From: a virus
Reading direction: 5' to 3' (one strand)
DNA length: 20,323 bases
Virus record (IMG/VR): IMGVR_UViG_3300030101_001456
Span: 1 to 20,323 of that record
Positions within the stretch are counted from its first letter, which is position 1; every line of letters starts with the position of its first letter. The translations under genes were made by a program, and so were the position numbers. The notes below the pieces were generated by a model, which did not search any database, was not told the origin of the DNA, and saw only the letters and a list, made by a program, of their open reading frames with translations. Below are positions 7,134-14,007 of this stretch, piece by piece.

Positions 7134-7165
7134 AATAGCCATCCTTTCGGGTGGCTATTTTTTTT
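7134..7165 (+). terminator. Intrinsic terminator after the 106-aa gene
   Basis: Bases 7134-7144 (AATAGCCATCC) pair with 7149-7159 (GGGTGGCTATT) through 11 bp with one G-T pair and a TTTC loop. An eight-T run (7158-7165) follows, partly inside the stem. It closes the 6781-7101 unit. Confidence 0.92.
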
Positions 7166-7233: not shown

Positions 7234-8022
7234 ATGGCTAAAAATTTCAAACACTTAGCAGTAGTAAAAGGTAATGTTGACGTTTCTAATAATCTTGCAT
7301 ATGCTGCTGATGATTTAATATTTGACTGGACTAGAATTGAAGTACCTAGAGGTGCTTTTTCTATACATAGTTGGAATATAATTCTACAAGGAGCAGACAC
7401 TACAGCTGGCGCAAACGCACATGACATGGGTTTTTATATAGCTAGAGAAGTAGATGGCGTTGCACCACCTAGTTTAGGTACCTCTAACACAGGCGCAACT
7501 AAAATAACGGCTAACGCTGCTAGACCACATATTATAGGTCACATATATGTAGACTTTAGTGCGTCTGAAGATCTTCACGATCCACTTAAAAGTTATAATG
7601 TTTTATCAAGCTCTGGAAATGGATCTTTAGTTACAAATAATAACAATCTACCATCATTTAATGGTAGTATGGTAATAGAAGGCGATTCTAAAACTACAGC
7701 TCCAGCTGGTAGCCAATATATATATGTAGCTTGTTTTGCTGGTAGTGGTACTCAAAATTTTGGTACAGGCGTTTTAGCTGCTGGAGCACATACATCTGGT
7801 TTATCAATAGATGTTGACGGTAACGATGCTGACGACACTTTCGCAGTAGGTGATGAAATCGTAGCTTTAGCGTCTGACGGTTCTGACGCTCAAGTTGTTG
7901 GAACTATAACAGCTTTAACTGATGCTACAATAACTGTTGATGCTTTAGGTGGAGCGTTAGCTGATGATGATGAGATATGTCACAGACATCCTATCGTTCT
8001 TTATCTAGGGCTTGATTATTAA
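7234..8022 (+). CDS. Probable capsid decoration or head-fibre protein, 262 aa, with inserted SH3-like barrel
   Basis: Beta-rich protein, role not proven. Residues 1-175 read as a jelly-roll-like chain (LIFDWTRIEVPRGAFSIHSW; HDMGFYIAREVDG; PHIIGHIYVDFS; QYIYVACFAGSG). Residues about 183-248 look like an inserted small barrel (DTFAVGDEIVALASDGSDAQ, then VVGTITALTDATITVD). The final strand (HRHPIVLYLGLDY) seems to resume the main fold. The barrel has the same pattern as the capsid insertion (VNDTVIVAS ... VTEVDA...IEV). There is no signal peptide. It starts a transcription unit after a terminator and is followed three bases later by the holin-like gene. A surface-exposed decoration or fibre-anchor role is inferred from beta content, position and expected high expression. 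Confidence 0.55.
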   Translation: MAKNFKHLAVVKGNVDVSNNLAYAADDLIFDWTRIEVPRGAFSIHSWNIILQGADTTAGANAHDMGFYIAREVDGVAPPSLGTSNTGATKITANAARPHIIGHIYVDFSASEDLHDPLKSYNVLSSSGNGSLVTNNNNLPSFNGSMVIEGDSKTTAPAGSQYIYVACFAGSGTQNFGTGVLAAGAHTSGLSIDVDGNDADDTFAVGDEIVALASDGSDAQVVGTITALTDATITVDALGGALADDDEICHRHPIVLYLGLDY

Positions 8023-8024
8023 TT

Positions 8025-8237
8025 ATGGAAATATTTAAAAACGACAATAACTGGAACGAAAAAGCCGTAGTAGGCTTTATAGCTTTTGCAGTTATGTGTA
8101 TGATAATGGTTGCTGACTTAGTAACTGGTTGGGTTGGTCAAGATTTAATAATAAACGAATACGTATACAACTCATTTGTTTGGGTTGTACTTGGTTGCTT
8201 CGGTATATCAGGCGTAGAGAAGTTTGCAAATAAATAG
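8025..8237 (+). CDS. Small two-helix membrane protein, holin-like
   Basis: 70-aa protein with two predicted membrane segments, about residues 14-33 (AVVGFIAFAVMCMIMVADLV) and 47-63 (NSFVWVVLGCFGISGVE). They are separated by a short polar turn (GQDLIINEY), with charged ends (FKNDNNWNEK; KFANK). This size and topology fit class II holins, which form inner-membrane holes to time lysis. Other small phage membrane proteins look alike, and no endolysin gene is adjacent. It is translationally close to its neighbours: the start is two bases after the preceding stop codon, and the next gene starts two bases after its own stop. Family resemblance to small membrane proteins of marine phages is from memory only. 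Confidence 0.5.
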   Translation: MEIFKNDNNWNEKAVVGFIAFAVMCMIMVADLVTGWVGQDLIINEYVYNSFVWVVLGCFGISGVEKFANK

Positions 8238-8239
8238 TT

Positions 8240-8407
8240 ATGGCTTTTAAAATGACATCACCTTTAAAGAAGAAAGGTAAGAAAGATGCTTGTTACCATA
8301 AGGTAAAATCAAGAGTTAAAGTTTGGCCTTCAGCTTATGCTTCAGGTCAACTAGTACAGTGTAGAAAACGCGGTGCCGCTAACTGGGGTGTCGGTAAAAA
8401 GAAATAA
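8240..8407 (+). CDS. 55-aa basic Cys-containing mini-protein
   Basis: Short gene, ATG 8240 to TAA 8405-8407, two bases after the preceding stop and one base before the next ATG. The N-terminus MAFKMTSPLKKKGKK is basic. A CYHKVKSR element follows, then VWPSAYASGQLVQCRKRGAANWG and a lysine tail. The two Cys flank the VWPSAYASG core. I recall this peptide (K-x-R-x-x-V-W-P-S-A-Y-A-S-G then C-R) from marine phages and giant algal viruses, without known function. Conservation of such a distinctive core argues that it is a real gene despite its size. Net charge is strongly positive. The start motif resembles those of the next basic proteins. DNA- or nucleoid-binding, or packaging in the virion, are guesses. 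Confidence 0.7.
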   Translation: MAFKMTSPLKKKGKKDACYHKVKSRVKVWPSAYASGQLVQCRKRGAANWGVGKKK

Positions 8408-8408
8408 T

Positions 8409-8768
8409 ATGCCTTTTAAACTTAGAAACAAAAGTATAAGTAAAATAATCAAAGAGCTTAAAGGCGCTAGTAAAATGCATGCGAGACAAGCTGAGGAGTT
8501 AGATAAGATAAATAAGTCACCTATAGCTAAAAGGATGGGTGAGTTTAAAGAGTCTGATGCTCCAGATGCCAAAGGTAAGTTTAGAGATTTGTCTGCACCT
8601 GAACTAGCTAGTTGGATGATTAAGTCTCGTAAGGGTGATCTATCTAAAATTATTAGTAGCTTAAACCAACAAGTAGTATTTAGAAGAAACAAAGATCCTA
8701 AGTACGCAGCTAAAATGCGTAGAACTATGGATATAGTTAGAAAAAGAATAGGTAAGAAAGATGAGTAG
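8409..8768 (+). CDS. Basic protein of unknown function, 119 aa
   Basis: I place the start at ATG 8409, one base after the 55-aa gene stop. An upstream in-frame GTG at 8373 would lie inside that gene and is less likely. The protein begins MPFKLRNKSISK, continues with a helical Lys/Glu/Asp-rich stretch containing INKSPIAKRMGEF, then DLSAPELASWMIKSRKGDLS (residues 63-82), and ends in a basic helix (YAAKMRRTMDIVRKRIGKK). Predicted all-alpha and soluble, with high positive charge. It overlaps the next gene by eight bases, so coupled translation is likely. Function is not recognised; a nucleic-acid-binding or virion cargo role is plausible from charge and neighbours, but unproven. Confidence 0.62.
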   Translation: MPFKLRNKSISKIIKELKGASKMHARQAEELDKINKSPIAKRMGEFKESDAPDAKGKFRDLSAPELASWMIKSRKGDLSKIISSLNQQVVFRRNKDPKYAAKMRRTMDIVRKRIGKKDE

Positions 8769-9057
8769 AAAAGATCCTTTAGTTGGTACAGGTAAAAAAC
8801 CTAAAGGTAGTGGTAGGAGATTATACACAGACGAAAATCCTAAAGATACTGTATCTATAAAGTTCGCTACAGTATCTGATGCTAGAAAAACAATAGCTAA
8901 AGTAAAGAACATAAATAAACCATACGCTAGAAAAATACAAATACTTACAGTGTTAGAGCAGAGAGCTAGGGTAATGGGGAAGATGGAACAAGCTAGATTA
9001 GCTAAGCAAGCTAAGAAACAATTAAAAAAACAACATGAGTTACGTTCAAAAAAATAA
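8761..9057 (+). CDS. Basic protein with GTGKKPKGSGRRLYTDENP signature, 98 aa
   Basis: Begins MSRKDPLVGTGKKPKGSGRR and continues LYTDENPKDTVSIKFATVSD (residues 21-40). It then becomes a basic helix (ARKIQILTVLEQRARVMGK) and a lysine-rich tail. The GTGKKPKGS...RRLYTDENPKDTV sequence is highly distinctive; I recall it from marine phages and giant viruses as a domain of unknown function, not tied to an enzyme. No Cys, no membrane segment. It overlaps the upstream gene by eight bases and the downstream gene by 23, unusually tight even for this compact genome. Role unknown; virion cargo or DNA binding is possible because of its charge. Confidence 0.68.
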   Translation: MSRKDPLVGTGKKPKGSGRRLYTDENPKDTVSIKFATVSDARKTIAKVKNINKPYARKIQILTVLEQRARVMGKMEQARLAKQAKKQLKKQHELRSKK

Positions 9058-9313
9058 TCCTATAAAAAAGATTAAAGGTGGCGGTACAAAGAAAGTTTGT
9101 TTACCTGCTGCTAAAGTTCGTAGTATGAGTAAAGGTGAGAGAGATAAAGTTGTTAGAGCTAAACGTAAAACTGCGTCTAGCGGTGGTTACAGAAGATCAA
9201 GTAAATCGAACGTTAAAGGTGCTAGAAGAAAAGGTGCTACACTTAGAGACTGGTTTAAAAAAGAAAATTGGGTTCAAGTAGGTAATCCAAGTAAAAAATG
9301 TGGTGAAGACTAA
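9035..9313 (+). CDS. Basic Cys-containing protein of unknown function, 92 aa
   Basis: Begins MSYVQKNNPIKKIKGGG, then KKVCLPAAKVRSMSKGERDK (residues 19-38), an Arg/Lys/Ser linker, KSNVKGARRKGATLRDWFKK (about residues 58-77), and NPSKKCGED at the end. There is one Cys near each end, as in the 55-aa protein. The N-terminal motif M-x-Y-x-Q-x-NNP-x-K is shared with the next gene. I recall similar sequences in marine phage genomes. It overlaps the upstream gene by 23 bases and the downstream ATG by one base (TAATG), so its translation is likely coupled to both. Function unknown. Confidence 0.65.
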   Translation: MSYVQKNNPIKKIKGGGTKKVCLPAAKVRSMSKGERDKVVRAKRKTASSGGYRRSSKSNVKGARRKGATLRDWFKKENWVQVGNPSKKCGED

Positions 9314-9672
9314 TGGCATATAAACAAGTAAACAATCCGTATAAAGTTACTAGCTGTGGTAGACGTAGAACGTTTATGCAAGGTAACGACTTACCTAAAG
9401 ATAGAACTGAAGGTCATCCGTTTAAAAAGCTAAGAAAAACTACTAGAGGTAAAGGTAGACATTTTCTTCATGCTGACGAAGGAGCTGGTATGACTGAGGC
9501 TGGTAGAAGAGCTTACAAAAAACAAAACCCTGGTAGTACTTTATCTGCACCAGTTACAGGTAAAGTTAAAGCAGGTAGTAAAGCAGCAAAACGTAGAAAA
9601 AGTTTTTGTGCTAGATCAAGAAGCTGGAAAAGTGAAAGAGGTTTAGCTGCAAGACGTAGATGGAAATGTTAA
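9313..9672 (+). CDS. Basic protein of unknown function, 119 aa, DUF6321-like
   Basis: Starts at the ATG overlapping the previous stop (TAATG). It begins MAYKQVNNPYKVTSCGRRRT, echoing the upstream protein. A middle basic region (KKLRKTTRGKGRHFLHADEG) is followed by GAGMTEAGRRAYKKQNPGST and RRKSFCARSRSWKSERG, ending RRRWKC. The T-E-A-G-R-x-x-Y-x-x-x-x-G then R-x-K-S-F-C-A-R arrangement resembles, from memory, a phage and giant-virus domain of unknown function (DUF6321). Arg/Lys content is extreme, comparable to protamine-like or nucleoid proteins. It overlaps the region just before the T9SS protein gene; the true start of that gene (9687) lies 15 bases after this stop. Confidence 0.65.
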   Translation: MAYKQVNNPYKVTSCGRRRTFMQGNDLPKDRTEGHPFKKLRKTTRGKGRHFLHADEGAGMTEAGRRAYKKQNPGSTLSAPVTGKVKAGSKAAKRRKSFCARSRSWKSERGLAARRRWKC

Positions 9673-9686
9673 ATATAAATAATAAA

Positions 9687-11948
9687 ATGAATAGAATAGT
9701 TTATCTTTTACTGCTTTTTACCAGTGTAACATCTAACGCTCAAGACTCTTTACTATATGACTGTTTAGGTAATGAAGTTACAGGTATAGAATCGTGGATA
9801 GGTGATGGGTTTTGTGATGACGGAGCTTACTCGTGGAATGGTTACGATGTTTACTTTAATTGCCCTGAGTTTAACTTTGATAACGGTGATTGCCCTTTAC
9901 CTATACTAGACACTATCTTCGGGTGTATGAACTTTTTAGCTTTAAACTACGTACCTGAAGCTAACTTTGAAGATGGATCTTGTATTATACCTATATTTGG
10001 ATGTATGGATCCGGACGCTGTAAACTACAACCCATTAGCTGAAGTTGATAATGGTAGCTGCGCTAGTGTTAGTTGTGATGATGGTGAAGTTAAAATGCTT
10101 TTAGAAGTTACATTAGATCAATATCCTGGAGAAACAGGTTGGATTCTTACTGATATATCAAATGGTCAACCAGTTGCAAATGTACAAGCTGGAGAATATT
10201 CTTACGACCAAGCTAATACAACAATACCTTACCAGTTATGTGTTCCTGAAACAGGAGTAGAACTTATATTAAGTGATACTTATGGGGACGGCATTGCTGG
10301 TTCTTTATTTGGTGGAGCTGCTGATGGTGATTTTGTTATATTAGGTGACTTAGAACCTTGTGGTAGTCCTGATACTATATGGGTTTTACCTGATCCTAAT
10401 TTTGGAGATGTAGTTTATTCAGGTGTTATATATTTAGATTACTGTGACATACCTTTAGTTGAAGGTTGTATAGATCCTAATTACGTTGAGTTTAATTCTC
10501 AAGCTGTAATAAGCGATAGCTCTTGTGTAACTGAACATATAGTAGGATGTACAAACTATGAGTCATTTAATTATGATTCCGTAGCTACACTTAATGATGT
10601 TGTAGATACGTGTAGCTACAAGTTAGTTATAGAAGACGACGGTGGAGATGGTTGGGGTGAATCACATATACTAGTTACTCAAGGTCAAACTATACTAGGT
10701 GTTTATACTATGGGACCTGGAGAATATAACCAAGTATTCTATATAGATTTAGCTACAGATAAACCTGTTAAGGTTAGATACTTTGAAGTTGGTGGACCAC
10801 AACAACCACCTCAAGAGGTTGAGTTTCAAACAATGCATAATTCTTTTTATTTGTTCAACTCTTATGAAGAGCTATTAATATCTGGTGGTACTGCACCCTT
10901 CGCAAATAACGGGGCAGGTGCACTACAATCTTTCGAACCACCTTTCTGGACTGTGTATGAGGCTTTACCTTACTGTGGAGATTATTGTATCGACATCGTT
11001 GAAGGTTGTATGGAGTATGGTTCTTTAAACTATGACTCGCTAGCTAACGTTGATAGCGGTAACTGTATTGAGCCTATATATGGATGCACTAATGGATTAG
11101 CTTTCAATTACGATTCACTAGCTAATGTAGATGATGGTGGTTGTGAATCAATAGTTTATGGATGCATGGAAGAGGATGCTTGGAACTATAACTATCTAGC
11201 TAACACACCTGATGAGTCTTGTTTATACTTTGGATGTATGGATCCTTTGGCAGATAACTATAATCCTATAGCTAACGTAGAACTTGATGGAGCTTGTTTT
11301 ACCACAGTATTAGGTTGCACAGATCCTAATGCATTTAATTACAATGCTGAGGCTAACACAGATGACTTCTCTTGCATTGAAATTATTTACGGATGTATAG
11401 ACTCATCTGCATTTAATTATGATCCTCTAGCTAATACTAGTAATGATGGTTGTTTAGAGATTGTTGAAGGATGTTTAGATTCTGAAGCTTATAATTACGA
11501 TGAATTTGCTAACACGGAAAATGGCGGATGTTTATATGACGCTGGTTGTATCGACGGTCCTGGTAATCCTTACTGGTTAAATGATACATGTTATGCTTGG
11601 GTTATTATGGTAGACTCATACTGTTGTAATACTGAGTGGGATGATAAGTGTCAAGAGTTATATTGGAAGTGTGGTGGTAATAGTGAGTTAGATGTTAGAG
11701 ATTTAATGAGAACAGCTGACATAGCTATTTACCCAGTACCTATGGATAATGAAGTTAACATACTAACTAAAAGTAAAGTTAGTATTAGAATCTACGATCT
11801 TCAAGGTAAACTTATTAAACATATAAGAGAAAAGCAAACTATAAAAGGTTTAAATACTTTAAATGTAAAATATATACCTTCAGGTTTATATAACATTAGC
11901 ATTACTTACGATAACAAAACAATAACAAAGCAGGTAGTTAAGAGATGA
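9687..11948 (+). CDS. T9SS-targeted cell-surface protein with eleven Cys repeats
   Basis: 753 aa from ATG 9687, chosen because it opens a clean signal peptide (MNRIVYLLLLFTSVTSNA|Q); ATGs at 9660 and 9666 would add a polar extension. Residues 25-70 are LNR (Lin-12/Notch)-like (WIGDGFCDDG ... CPEFNFDNGDC). Eleven repeats of GC-x-x-x-x-x-x-x-NY/F-x-x-x-A-...-C follow: two from about residue 79, two mid-protein, seven in tandem at about 440-615. Between them are two beta-rich segments (LSDTYGDGIAGS; EDDGGDGWGE). After the repeats comes a CCNTEWDDKC element. The last 75 residues (678-753) are a type A T9SS sorting domain: IYPVPMDNEVNI, IRIYDLQGKLI, IPSGLYNISI, ending KQVVKR. Such proteins cross the outer membrane and are anchored to the surface. 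No enzyme motif is seen; adhesin or surface masking is inferred. It overlaps the next gene by ATGA. Confidence 0.85.
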   Translation: MNRIVYLLLLFTSVTSNAQDSLLYDCLGNEVTGIESWIGDGFCDDGAYSWNGYDVYFNCPEFNFDNGDCPLPILDTIFGCMNFLALNYVPEANFEDGSCIIPIFGCMDPDAVNYNPLAEVDNGSCASVSCDDGEVKMLLEVTLDQYPGETGWILTDISNGQPVANVQAGEYSYDQANTTIPYQLCVPETGVELILSDTYGDGIAGSLFGGAADGDFVILGDLEPCGSPDTIWVLPDPNFGDVVYSGVIYLDYCDIPLVEGCIDPNYVEFNSQAVISDSSCVTEHIVGCTNYESFNYDSVATLNDVVDTCSYKLVIEDDGGDGWGESHILVTQGQTILGVYTMGPGEYNQVFYIDLATDKPVKVRYFEVGGPQQPPQEVEFQTMHNSFYLFNSYEELLISGGTAPFANNGAGALQSFEPPFWTVYEALPYCGDYCIDIVEGCMEYGSLNYDSLANVDSGNCIEPIYGCTNGLAFNYDSLANVDDGGCESIVYGCMEEDAWNYNYLANTPDESCLYFGCMDPLADNYNPIANVELDGACFTTVLGCTDPNAFNYNAEANTDDFSCIEIIYGCIDSSAFNYDPLANTSNDGCLEIVEGCLDSEAYNYDEFANTENGGCLYDAGCIDGPGNPYWLNDTCYAWVIMVDSYCCNTEWDDKCQELYWKCGGNSELDVRDLMRTADIAIYPVPMDNEVNILTKSKVSIRIYDLQGKLIKHIREKQTIKGLNTLNVKYIPSGLYNISITYDNKTITKQVVKR

Positions 11949-13033
11949 TGAATAATATTAAAAACTGGTTACTACAAACTTTAATAAGCATAGGTCTTGT
12001 TATATTATTTTCTTTTGTATTAATATCAATCACTAGGTCTTGTAACGCTCAAGGTTTAAACAAGATACTAAAGTACTCTACGTTTTATGCTGCTGTTAAC
12101 GGTGGTACATCTTTGTCAGATGATCAAGTATGGTCTATAACTTCAGGTGTTTTAGAAGAAGATATTATAGAAACTCCTTTTGATTATACCTTATCTATAG
12201 GTATTAGAAAGATTAAAAGGTTTGGTTACGAAAACAGAGCTAACACATTTTATAATGGTACTGAAAACTCTTATTCAGATGCAGCGACATTAGGTAGGTT
12301 AAATGGTTTTGAATACTTATTTGAATATGATTTAGTAAGAAGGTTAGGTGTCAAGTATACTAACCAAGATCACTTTGTAAGATACGTAGCTGATCATTGG
12401 GTTGCTAAAGTTGCATATGTTGAAGATGGGTTTGCAGATATAAAATACTTTGAAGCGTCTCAGAGATACAGAAAACAAATAGGTGAGGGTAAATTATCTT
12501 TCAACGTTGGAGCTGTACAGAGATTATCTGAGCCATACGGATTTGATCCACTTGCTGACTGGGTTTTAGATAACGGTACACTACATTATACATACTTAGC
12601 TTTACAAGAGGGTTATAATGTAGATATGCAAGGAAACTACTTCAGCCCAGACGGGACTTTAGTTGCAGACAATCAAGCGGTTTGGGAAGAGGTTGTTATA
12701 CCTGAAGTTATAAACGATTATGTCGATAAGCAAAGGAATGCTTTAGATAATATAGTTGAATATTCTGTAATCTTAGGATTTGACTACTATCATTTTACAA
12801 AGGACTTTTGGTTTCACAGCTGGGGTAACTTAATGCCTTACCATTTAGAATCAAAAGATCAATACTCTTATTATAACTACAAGGGTAAACAATGGGTTGA
12901 CTACTCAACTGGTTTAATCTTTGGCTACAGATTTAACAAAAGTCTAGGTTGTTTTGTTGAAGGTAAGTATAATAAGTATTGGAATAGAGAGTGGCATAAT
13001 TTTAGTGTAGGGATTAATTACGTAATATTTTAG
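11945..13033 (+). CDS. Predicted outer-membrane beta-barrel protein, 362 aa
   Basis: Starts in the ATGA overlap of the T9SS protein gene; a second ATG at 11948 is equally possible. A long hydrophobic leader (LLQTLISIGLVILFSFVLIS, residues 9-28) ends in TRSCNAQ, a likely Ala-Gln cleavage site. The Cys there lacks a good lipobox because Arg precedes it. The mature chain alternates polar and hydrophobic/aromatic strands (YTLSIGIRKIKRFG; KLSFNVGAVQRLS; VEYSVILGFDYYHF; STGLIFGYRFNKSLG). It ends FSVGINYVIF, with the terminal aromatic Phe typical of barrels recognised by the BAM machinery. The loops are Tyr/Trp-rich. I recall a related family in uncultured marine phages, role unknown. Surface receptor blocking, permeability or late envelope disruption are inferred options. 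Confidence 0.7.
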   Translation: MMNNIKNWLLQTLISIGLVILFSFVLISITRSCNAQGLNKILKYSTFYAAVNGGTSLSDDQVWSITSGVLEEDIIETPFDYTLSIGIRKIKRFGYENRANTFYNGTENSYSDAATLGRLNGFEYLFEYDLVRRLGVKYTNQDHFVRYVADHWVAKVAYVEDGFADIKYFEASQRYRKQIGEGKLSFNVGAVQRLSEPYGFDPLADWVLDNGTLHYTYLALQEGYNVDMQGNYFSPDGTLVADNQAVWEEVVIPEVINDYVDKQRNALDNIVEYSVILGFDYYHFTKDFWFHSWGNLMPYHLESKDQYSYYNYKGKQWVDYSTGLIFGYRFNKSLGCFVEGKYNKYWNREWHNFSVGINYVIF

Positions 13034-13035
13034 AC

Positions 13036-13320
13036 ATGGCAAAAGAATTAAATGAAGATACAACGCTTAAGCTAAGTATAAAAACTTTAGCTGGTATAGC
13101 GGTACTTATATTCACATTGGTAGGTATGTGGTTCACACTACAAGGAGATATAGCAGACGCTAAAGAATTACCTAAACCACCGGATCCAGAGATAACTCGT
13201 ATGGAGTATGATATGAAGGACCAGTTGATAAGGCAAACTATCATGTCTACACAAGACGATGTTAGAGAGATCAAAGATCAAATGATTAGAGTAGAAGAGA
13301 AAATTGACAAACTAAAGTAG
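13036..13320 (+). CDS. Membrane-anchored coiled-coil protein, 94 aa (inner-membrane spanin-like topology)
   Basis: One membrane helix near the N-terminus (about residues 17-35, LAGIAVLIFTLVGMWFTLQ) follows a charged start (MAKELNEDTTLKL). After it come a Pro-rich linker (ELPKPPDPEI) and a charged heptad-like helix to the end (DDVREIKDQMIRVEEKIDKL). An N-terminal anchor with a C-terminal coiled coil matches inner-membrane spanins, which link the inner and outer membranes during lysis of Gram-negative hosts. It also matches many other small phage membrane proteins. The ATG is two bases after the preceding stop codon, and the next gene begins five bases after its own stop. A lysis role is suggested by topology and neighbours only. 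Confidence 0.5.
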   Translation: MAKELNEDTTLKLSIKTLAGIAVLIFTLVGMWFTLQGDIADAKELPKPPDPEITRMEYDMKDQLIRQTIMSTQDDVREIKDQMIRVEEKIDKLK

Positions 13321-13325
13321 CAAAT

Positions 13326-13628
13326 ATGAAGCAAGCACTCATTATATTTTTTATGATAACAAATATAGTAAGTGCTCAAGCTTTGAGGCAAGACAAACTG
13401 TTACACGCTAGTGGTTCGTATTTTGTTAGCTCTACGGTTAGCTCTTTAGTTTACGATAAAACAGGAGACAGAAACAAGTCTCTTGCTATTGGGTTTGCAG
13501 TATCAATGTTAGTTGGTATTGGTAAAGAGGTTTACGACATTAAGCACGGTGATCCAGACGTTAAAGATATACTAGCTAATACTGTAGGCTCTAGTTTAGG
13601 TATTATAACTATTAGAATAACATTATGA
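13326..13628 (+). CDS. Secreted/envelope small protein, 100 aa, YfiM/VanZ-like pattern
   Basis: Signal peptide MKQALIIFFMITNIVSA with a likely cut before QALRQ. The mature part begins DKLLHASGSYFVSSTVSSLV, followed by a charged turn (YDKTGDRNKS), a hydrophobic helix (LAIGFAVSMLVGIGKEVYD, residues 57-75), KHGDPDVKDILANTVGSSLG and a final hydrophobic stretch. D-K-x-x-H near the start and G-x-x-K-E-x-x-D after the middle helix recall YfiM/DUF2279-type and VanZ-like proteins, known in Bacteroidota, though this is pattern memory. The conserved His and Lys-Glu-Asp set hints at a functional site. Its stop overlaps the next ATG (ATGA), so the pair is likely co-translated. Function unknown; periplasmic or membrane location inferred. 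Confidence 0.55.
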   Translation: MKQALIIFFMITNIVSAQALRQDKLLHASGSYFVSSTVSSLVYDKTGDRNKSLAIGFAVSMLVGIGKEVYDIKHGDPDVKDILANTVGSSLGIITIRITL

Positions 13629-13957
13629 AGAAACTATTACTATTATTAATATCAATCAATTGTTTTGCTCAAGATTTTCCTGAAGGATTAACAGTTGTTG
13701 AGTTTAACGCTAGCTTTAATAAAGCTAATGAAGTTGCTTGGCTATCTAAGTTAACAGATTGCGAGGTGGAAAGAGTGGATATAACATCAGACTCAAGATG
13801 GGCTAGTGAATATAAGATTGTTGTTGTACCTACACTACTAGTTTTAAATAACAACGAAGAGGTAAAAAGATTTCAAGCTAATATAATGATGTCAATGGAA
13901 GCTACGTTAAGAGAAGTACAAGAGTCAGTTGATGAAATAATAATGGAAGCATTTTAA
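13625..13957 (+). CDS. Secreted thioredoxin-fold protein lacking the CxxC pair, 110 aa
   Basis: Signal peptide MKKLLLLLISINCFA|Q. The mature chain follows a thioredoxin layout: strand VVEFNASFNK (residues about 24-33), helix, strand ERVDITSD, helix, then KIVVVPTLLVLNNNEEVKRF with the cis-Pro (VVPT) and last strands. The usual W-C-x-x-C redox motif is replaced by A-S-F-N-K-A-N, and the only mature Cys (TDCEV) is elsewhere, so normal disulfide exchange is unlikely. A C-terminal extension (NIMMSMEATLREVQESVDEI) is helical and unusual for thioredoxin. I recall related phage proteins with the same RFQANIM ending. It probably acts in the periplasm as a binding scaffold; the target is unknown. A terminator follows. 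Confidence 0.65.
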   Translation: MKKLLLLLISINCFAQDFPEGLTVVEFNASFNKANEVAWLSKLTDCEVERVDITSDSRWASEYKIVVVPTLLVLNNNEEVKRFQANIMMSMEATLREVQESVDEIIMEAF

Positions 13958-13979: not shown

Positions 13980-14007
13980 AATACCACTCTACACGGGTGG
14001 TATTTTT
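13980..14007 (+). terminator. Intrinsic terminator after the envelope gene block
   Basis: Bases 13980-13989 (AATACCACTC) pair with 13995-14004 (GGGTGGTATT) through 10 bp with one G-T pair and a TACAC loop, followed by TTTTT (14003-14007). It closes the operon that ends with the thioredoxin-fold gene and separates it from the ring-protein genes. Confidence 0.88.

What the first reader, a model, noticed from the sequence alone, without database searches (positions are those of the whole stretch)
9687..13957. Five-gene envelope-targeted block inside a phage structural region
Five consecutive, overlapping or near-abutting genes encode products with signal peptides or membrane anchors: T9SS Cys-repeat protein, outer-membrane barrel, anchored coiled coil, YfiM-like secreted protein and thioredoxin-fold secreted protein. 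Four of the signal peptides end in Ala-Gln. Terminators or different gene types bound the block on both sides. It may be a coordinated host-envelope programme: surface masking, superinfection exclusion, or outer-membrane breach for lysis. I do not know of a described system of this composition.
Basis: partly seen in the sequence, partly recalled or inferred. Interest (0 to 1): 0.75.

Follow-up and report, generated by a model that had tools for sequence, protein, structure and literature searches.

The report
Phage envelope genes linked to lysis
A set of phage genes whose proteins are sent to every layer of the host's outer envelope travels together through hundreds of uncultured marine viruses, usually beside the enzyme that dissolves the cell wall, so it is probably an undescribed tool by which viruses of Bacteroidota break out of their host.

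Summary
All five genes lie where stated, overlap or nearly abut, and four carry Bacteroidota-type ('Q-rule') signal peptides. Gene 1 ends in a T9SS sorting domain; gene 2 models as an outer-membrane barrel; gene 3 is an inner-membrane anchor with a predicted coiled coil; gene 4 is DUF2279-like; gene 5 is a thioredoxin fold whose catalytic Cys pair is replaced by Asn. Linkage is strong: of 241 gene-2 loci, 223 have gene 3 and 223 gene 5 within 8 kb. The core is genes 2-3-5; gene 1 marks one clade and gene 4 is optional. Genes 2, 3 and 5 have no homologue among 50,697 phage records and recur on unrelated backbones. In 29 of 30 large contigs with an M15 endolysin, the enzyme lies within 9 kb downstream of gene 2 on the same strand; in a divergent clade M15 follows 2-3-5 in most loci. 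In the window the unit is an insertion bounded by two terminators, absent from close relatives. Best reading: a lysis-linked trans-envelope module, probably for outer-membrane breach. Function is inferred from position and anatomy, not shown; superinfection exclusion is the main rival.

The parts
7134..7159 (+). Terminator-like hairpin (11 pairs, then T run) that precedes the unit
7234..8022 (+). p7234, 262 aa, unknown; relatives often lie right after the holin in kin phages
8025..8237 (+). TM: 70-aa protein with two hydrophobic segments; 67 of 68 relatives lie within 8 genes of g2, holin or M15
8240..9672 (+). Five small basic genes (8240-8407 weakly DUF5872-like, 8409-8768, 8761-9057, 9035-9313, 9313-9672); part of the insert, not of the core
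9687..11948 (+). g1: 753-aa secreted Cys-rich repeat protein with T9SS sorting domain; clade A accessory
9687..9740 (+). g1 signal peptide (MNRIVYLLLLFTSVTSNA, next residue Gln)
   Evidence: sequence; for the family
11727..11936 (+). g1 T9SS C-terminal sorting domain (residues 681-750)
   Evidence: PF18962, E 8e-11; 8glk_D Z 9.3, 8gl6_D Z 9.7
11945..13033 (+). g2: 362-aa predicted outer-membrane beta-barrel with Q-rule signal; core gene
13036..13320 (+). g3: 94-aa membrane anchor with predicted coiled coil; core gene
13326..13628 (+). g4: 100-aa DUF2279/VanZ-like exported protein; optional
13625..13957 (+). g5: 110-aa exported thioredoxin fold with WCxxC changed to FNxxN; core gene
13980..14004 (+). 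Terminator-like hairpin (10 pairs, then T run) that closes the unit

Best explanation
Genes 2, 3 and 5 are the core of a lysis-linked trans-envelope module of phages of Bacteroidota. Inferred mechanism: late in infection g2 is exported and folded into the outer membrane, g3 sits in the inner membrane with its coiled coil in the periplasm, and the redox-dead thioredoxin g5 is a periplasmic adaptor that links or times the two. Once the endolysin removes peptidoglycan, the g3-g5-g2 assembly joins or destabilises the two membranes so that the outer membrane fails, doing the job that spanins do elsewhere. g1, sent to the cell surface by the host T9SS in one clade, would help from outside. Shown: export signals, domains, linkage, conservation, proximity to endolysins, occurrence on different backbones. 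Inferred: late expression, topology of g3, contacts among the proteins, role in outer-membrane breach, role of g1.
For: g2-g3-g5 linked in 223 of 241 loci with junctions within -10 to +20 nt in 168/213 and 198/208 cases. M15 endolysin within 9 kb downstream of g2 on the same strand in 29 of 30 large contigs that have it. Clade B: M15 within 8 kb in 69 of 81 loci, and L252 reads M15-g2-g3-g5 with touching frames. Other backbones: amidase upstream and holin-family gene downstream of the block (L060, L061, L063). L301, L331 and L332 read g3-g5-g2-M15-holin, with one small gene before M15 in L301. TM sits by the holin when not by g2. At the place before c12/c13/terL where MW202828 has holin, anchored beta-rich protein and M15, phages such as L009 have the block, M15 and holin. 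No Rz-type spanin in 50 records. Purifying selection.
Against: In the window the unit lies among virion genes, with its own terminators and no endolysin or holin beside it; in the same-backbone contig G003 the holin is upstream of terL and no M15 was found, though the contig ends in the giant gene. Some clade B loci have a lipoprotein and a cationic peptide by M15 that could do the breach instead. L084, with an 88% identical capsid protein, has M15 but no g2, so the module is not needed by all. No interaction or activity was tested; the g2 model is of medium confidence; related loci are not independent.
Confidence: 0.5

Rival explanations
1. Superinfection exclusion or surface masking: g1 coats the cell through T9SS, and g2 with g3 and g5 alters or occludes the outer-membrane receptor so that other phages cannot enter.
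For: Surface destination of g1; in the window the unit is a terminator-bounded insertion between p5829 and v14061, like a moron, absent from close relatives; it moves between backbones.
Against: Steady association with endolysins of two families on several backbones; g2 and g3 are highly conserved with dN/dS of 0.07-0.09, whereas exclusion genes usually vary (general knowledge); clade B lacks g1.
Confidence: 0.2
2. Envelope remodelling without lysis or exclusion: g2 is a porin or T9SS-related barrel, with g1 as its substrate, that changes uptake, adhesion or secretion of the infected cell.
For: g2 resembles porins such as CymA and OmpG in fold; g1 is a T9SS substrate; g1 and g2 are neighbours in most clade A loci, recalling pairs such as SprB with SprF (recalled, not tested).
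Against: g2 has no match to any Pfam family of outer-membrane proteins; clade B has g2 without g1; the link to endolysins is unexplained.
Confidence: 0.15
3. Virion components: the proteins are parts of the particle or are ejected at entry.
For: Position among virion genes in the window; a giant gene precedes g2 in many loci; Cys repeats like those of g1 occur in a cyanophage protein annotated as virion structural.
Against: Four of the five proteins have Sec signals that obey the host's Q-rule, which fits export rather than packaging.
Confidence: 0.05

Closest known systems
Two-component spanins (lambda Rz/Rz1 type)
   Same: Inner-membrane protein with periplasmic coiled coil (g3) plus an outer-membrane partner, close to the endolysin gene
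   Different: Outer-membrane partner would be a barrel, not a lipoprotein; a third protein (redox-dead thioredoxin) is always present; no PF03245 match in 50 records
Unimolecular spanins of Bacteroidetes phages
   Same: The only spanin class reported for Bacteroidetes phages (PMC12596118); candidates lie by the endolysin (PMC8776804)
   Different: One protein with lipobox and membrane helix; here several proteins share the compartments
T9SS sorting domains in Cryophage genes (PMC7468147)
   Same: Phage-encoded proteins with T9SS type A sorting domain
   Different: Those are variable carbohydrate-active or PA14 proteins, not part of a conserved gene set by the endolysin
Q-rule proteins of Porphyromonas gingivalis phages (PMC10367356)
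   Same: Phage proteins with signal peptides that expose an N-terminal Gln
   Different: No shared gene set was shown here
Lambda Lom and other phage-encoded outer-membrane proteins (recalled, not tested)
   Same: Outer-membrane barrel encoded among late genes
   Different: No sequence match of g2 to any Pfam family; g2 always travels with g3 and g5

Membership tests
T9SS type A substrates (g1) | N-terminal Sec signal | tested here: met
   hydrophobic signal ending Ala|Gln; 121 of 148 relatives (crude rule)
T9SS type A substrates (g1) | C-terminal sorting domain of Ig-like fold | tested here: met
   PF18962 42.4 bits, cut-off 27; Z 9.3-9.7 to solved CTDs
T9SS type A substrates (g1) | T9SS-dependent appearance on the surface | not testable with these tools
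   needs a T9SS mutant
Outer-membrane beta-barrels (g2) | Closed barrel of amphipathic strands, Sec signal | tested here: inconclusive
   about 12 strands, pLDDT 68, Z 11.6 to CymA; signal met; closure of the barrel not measured
PorP/SprF and other Pfam outer-membrane protein families (g2) | Sequence match to the family profile | tested here: not met
   46 members, no such family at E 0.01
Active thioredoxins (g5) | Thioredoxin fold | tested here: met
   PF00085 in 22 of 25 members at E 0.01; PDB thioredoxins down to E 1e-8
Active thioredoxins (g5) | CxxC active site | tested here: not met
   replaced mostly by NxxN; CxxC in 1 of 228
YfiM/DUF2279 lipoproteins (g4) | Profile score over cut-off | tested here: inconclusive
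   28.4 bits against 28.6 in the window; 32.5 in L008
Two-component spanins | i-spanin: one N-terminal membrane helix and periplasmic coiled coil | tested here: inconclusive
   g3 has the layout by eye; topology not computed
Two-component spanins | o-spanin lipoprotein partner | tested here: not met
   none among g1-g5 in the window by sequence; a Pro-rich lipoprotein occurs by M15 in 21 clade B loci
Two-component spanins | PF03245 (Rz) sequence family | tested here: not met
   0 of 50 records, control E. coli positive
Phage lysis cassette | Adjacent endolysin and holin | tested here: inconclusive
   met in many relatives; not met inside the window; window-type contig G003 ends in the giant gene, before the region where kin keep M15
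Superinfection exclusion systems | Protection of the host against other phages | not testable with these tools
   needs plating assays

The most novel reading that the evidence does not exclude
A third kind of phage outer-membrane breach, distinct from spanins and disruptins: an outer-membrane barrel, an inner-membrane coiled-coil anchor and a redox-dead thioredoxin adaptor acting together with the endolysin, spread across many lineages of marine Bacteroidota phages and in one clade joined by a protein that the host's own type IX system places on the cell surface.
Probability: 0.33. Interest if true: 0.85.

Novelty: new variant of a known kind. Interest (0 to 1): 0.66.

Why it matters
How phages of Bacteroidota, major marine and gut bacteria, open the outer membrane is poorly known; a published survey gives only unimolecular spanins for them (PMC12596118). 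A conserved gene trio beside the endolysin in hundreds of marine viral contigs, with no counterpart found in sequenced isolates, names exact candidates to test. It also suggests that phages send a protein to the cell surface through the host's T9SS as part of a conserved module, and provides a marker for a large uncultured virus group.

Tried and rejected
Chance clustering of signal peptides: rejected by linkage in 223 of 241 loci and by controls. Ala-Gln endings as a special mark: rejected, it is the Bacteroidetes Q-rule. Recent copying as the sole cause of similarity: fourfold sites between backbones are near the random value of 0.50 while g2 keeps 74-79% identity. Host origin: g2 in only 2 of 396 Flavobacteriales genomes, one of them the MAG already found, the other a 56-kb contig whose order (giant gene, M15, g2, g3, g5, nucleotide-metabolism genes) looks viral; 3 MAG contigs in the GTDB scan. 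Isolate relatives: tblastn of g2, g3 and g5, and of divergent g2 and g3, against 50,697 phage records gave nothing convincing. Fold searches gave only generic barrels for g2, and BFVD A0A516LKJ4 (E 9e-24, 22% identity) could not be traced to a phage. Monophyly of the window-type backbone in the g2 tree was not rejected (p-AU 0.52); that of the other large backbone group was (p about 1e-4), but that group was drawn up by gene content. Mutual exclusion of g2 with the 207-aa protein of MW202828 could not be tested, as the latter has no relatives. A paper on Flavobacterium endolysin and SprA (PMC12628812) proved to be protein engineering, not biology of this kind.
Full report
WHAT IS THERE. The window is a 20,323-base virus record from a podovirus-like phage: end of terL, portal, scaffold, capsid protein, then the block, then virion genes (terL, scaffold and capsid are named by position and by comparison with annotated relatives). 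The portal is 54% identical to MW202828, a circular phage genome from Manatee Spring, and about 42% to Flavobacterium phages. The five genes are at the stated places with junctions of -4, +2, +5 and -4 nt. Terminator-like hairpins at 7134-7159 and 13980-14004 bound a larger unit holding p7234, the 70-residue protein TM with two hydrophobic segments, five small basic genes and g1-g5.

WHERE THE PROTEINS SHOULD GO. g1, g2, g4 and g5 carry signal peptides that would expose a Gln, the known Bacteroidetes Q-rule (PMC5837995). By a simple hydropathy and AQ rule this holds in relatives for g1 121/148, g2 155/162, g4 15/15 and g5 141/150, and for none of the portal, capsid or M15 proteins. g1 ends in a T9SS sorting domain in 32 of 41 relatives scanned, and its modelled end matches solved T9SS substrates (NucA 8glk_D Z 9.3, rmsd 2.0, 72 residues, 29% identity; RemA 8gl6_D Z 9.7, rmsd 1.9, 73 residues). 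g2 is modelled as a barrel-like sheet with medium confidence (pLDDT 68, pTM 0.63) that resembles CymA and OmpG (Z 11.6 and 11.5, rmsd 5.0 and 4.7, 208 and 186 residues) and has no relevant Pfam family or PDB sequence relative. g3 has one N-terminal hydrophobic segment and a strongly conserved charged tail. g5 is a thioredoxin fold by profile whose WCxxC has mostly become (F/W)NxxN; CxxC is left in 1 of 228. So the products are predicted for the inner membrane, periplasm, outer membrane and surface.

LINKAGE. Three searches of IMG/VR gave 489, 405 and 150 confirmed g2 relatives for three seeds (the sets may overlap, and 80 loci of each were kept). Of 241 loci examined, g3 is within 8 kb on the same strand in 223 and g5 in 223 (79+67+77 and 78+68+77 of 81, 79 and 81). 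The junction g2-g3 is within -10 to +20 nt in 168 of 213 cases, g3-g5 in 198 of 208. g4 is present in 15 of 81 loci of the window's set and 6 of 81 in clade B. g1 is near in 76 of 81 and 57 of 79 loci of clade A and in none of clade B. The core is therefore g2-g3-g5. dN/dS medians are 0.07, 0.09, 0.13 and 0.16 for g2, g3, g5 and g1. Loci were chosen by g2 similarity and many are related, so counts are not independent.

MOVEMENT. The window and L009 differ at portal (35% identity) and terL (46%) but share 79% of g2, 80% of g3 and 87% of TM, whereas within the window's own backbone (L007) portal is 84% and g2 75%. Since g2 and portal diverge at similar rates within a backbone, the block must have passed between backbones. 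It also sits in contigs of 127 and 138 kb (L053, L071) without detectable relatives of the window's terL, portal or capsid genes in the stretches held. In L084 (capsid 88% identical), L085, L082, L095 and MW202828, p5829 is followed directly by v14061, so the unit (p6781 included) is an insertion in the window or was lost in all of these. L084's 63-kb contig has no g2.

LYSIS NEIGHBOURS. In many relatives the next genes after g5 are a Peptidase_M15_3 endolysin (E 5e-16) and a GTA-type holin (E 2e-7). Of 48 contigs of 40 kb or more, 30 have M15 over cut-off, and in 29 it is within 9 kb downstream of g2 on the same strand (median 3.0 kb); the chance per record is about 0.07. In clade B, 55 of 56 loci with room downstream have a peptidoglycan-hydrolase candidate within 8 kb. 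The divergent L252 reads M15-g2-g3-g5 with touching frames. With another endolysin type, an amidase, the block is again adjacent and a gene of the holin cluster follows g5 (L060, L061, L063). L053 has a weakly SLT-like protein and L052 a DUF5675 protein nearby; their lytic role is a guess. M15 makes up 48 of 57, 23 of 29 and 69 of 72 of the hydrolase-positive loci in the three sets; in set A2 only 25 of 35 loci with room are positive. TM, when not beside g2, sits by the holin or M15 (67 of 68). Holins are often far from g2, upstream of terL. Rz-type spanins are absent from 50 records.

POSITIONAL STAND-IN. MW202828 carries a holin (Phage_holin_4_1), a 207-aa protein with an N-terminal hydrophobic segment and a beta-rich end (by eye), and M15, in front of terL. 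At that place phages such as L009 and L016 carry g1-g2-g3-g5-M15-holin. This suggests, without proving, that g2-g3-g5 stand where a spanin would.

MECHANISM. The parts span the envelope and travel with the endolysin, and none of the three core parts has a recognisable enzymatic site. The best-supported reading is outer-membrane breach after the endolysin acts, with g3 and g2 bridging the membranes and g5 as adaptor; g1 is a clade-specific surface accessory. I put this at 0.5. Against it stand the window's own arrangement, where the unit is a terminator-bound insertion away from known lysis genes and resembles a moron, and the additional lipoprotein and cationic peptide in part of clade B, which might do the breach. 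Superinfection exclusion stays at 0.2.

KNOWN OR NEW. Published work gives unimolecular spanins as the only spanin class in Bacteroidetes phages (PMC12596118), T9SS sorting domains on phage proteins (PMC7468147), Q-rule proteins in Porphyromonas phages (PMC10367356) and spanin candidates beside endolysins in flavophages (PMC8776804). I found no description of this module in eight searches of an open-access library, which leaves out most subscription papers. I file it as a new variant of phage lysis-associated envelope genes; 'categorically new' would need proof of function.

Noticed in passing
L267:12246-12389, L285:11958-12098 and other clade B loci: A 46-47 aa peptide rich in Trp at its start and Lys at its end lies between g5 and the M15 endolysin; it recalls a membrane-disrupting (disruptin-like) peptide and has no Pfam or PHROG match.
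   Followed up: partly
L267:12840-13262, L272:12834-13271 and 19 other clade B loci: A Pro/Asn-rich lipoprotein with a conserved 'THVLA(L/V)T..GD' stretch, usually right after M15, could be an outer-membrane spanin.
   Followed up: partly
L246:4874-5734 (-): PAP2 phosphatase domain (E 4e-10) behind a metallopeptidase-like segment, next to the holin upstream of terL in a window-type phage.
   Followed up: no
L246:6155-7997 (-): Phage-encoded GroEL- and GroES-like genes in the window-type genome, also annotated in MW202828.
   Followed up: no
L347 (record positions 51734-52159): A 141-aa protein that looks like a small outer-membrane barrel with a Q-rule signal, in a close relative (G468) that lacks g2.
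   Followed up: no
L084:20683-21560; window 10900-11550: Cys repeats like those of g1 also occur in a gene of the virion region of L084 and in a cyanophage S-CAM3 virion structural protein.
   Followed up: no
L278:12201-12506: A g4 relative with a lipobox-like signal and a C-terminal hydrophobic stretch, the layout of a unimolecular spanin.
   Followed up: no
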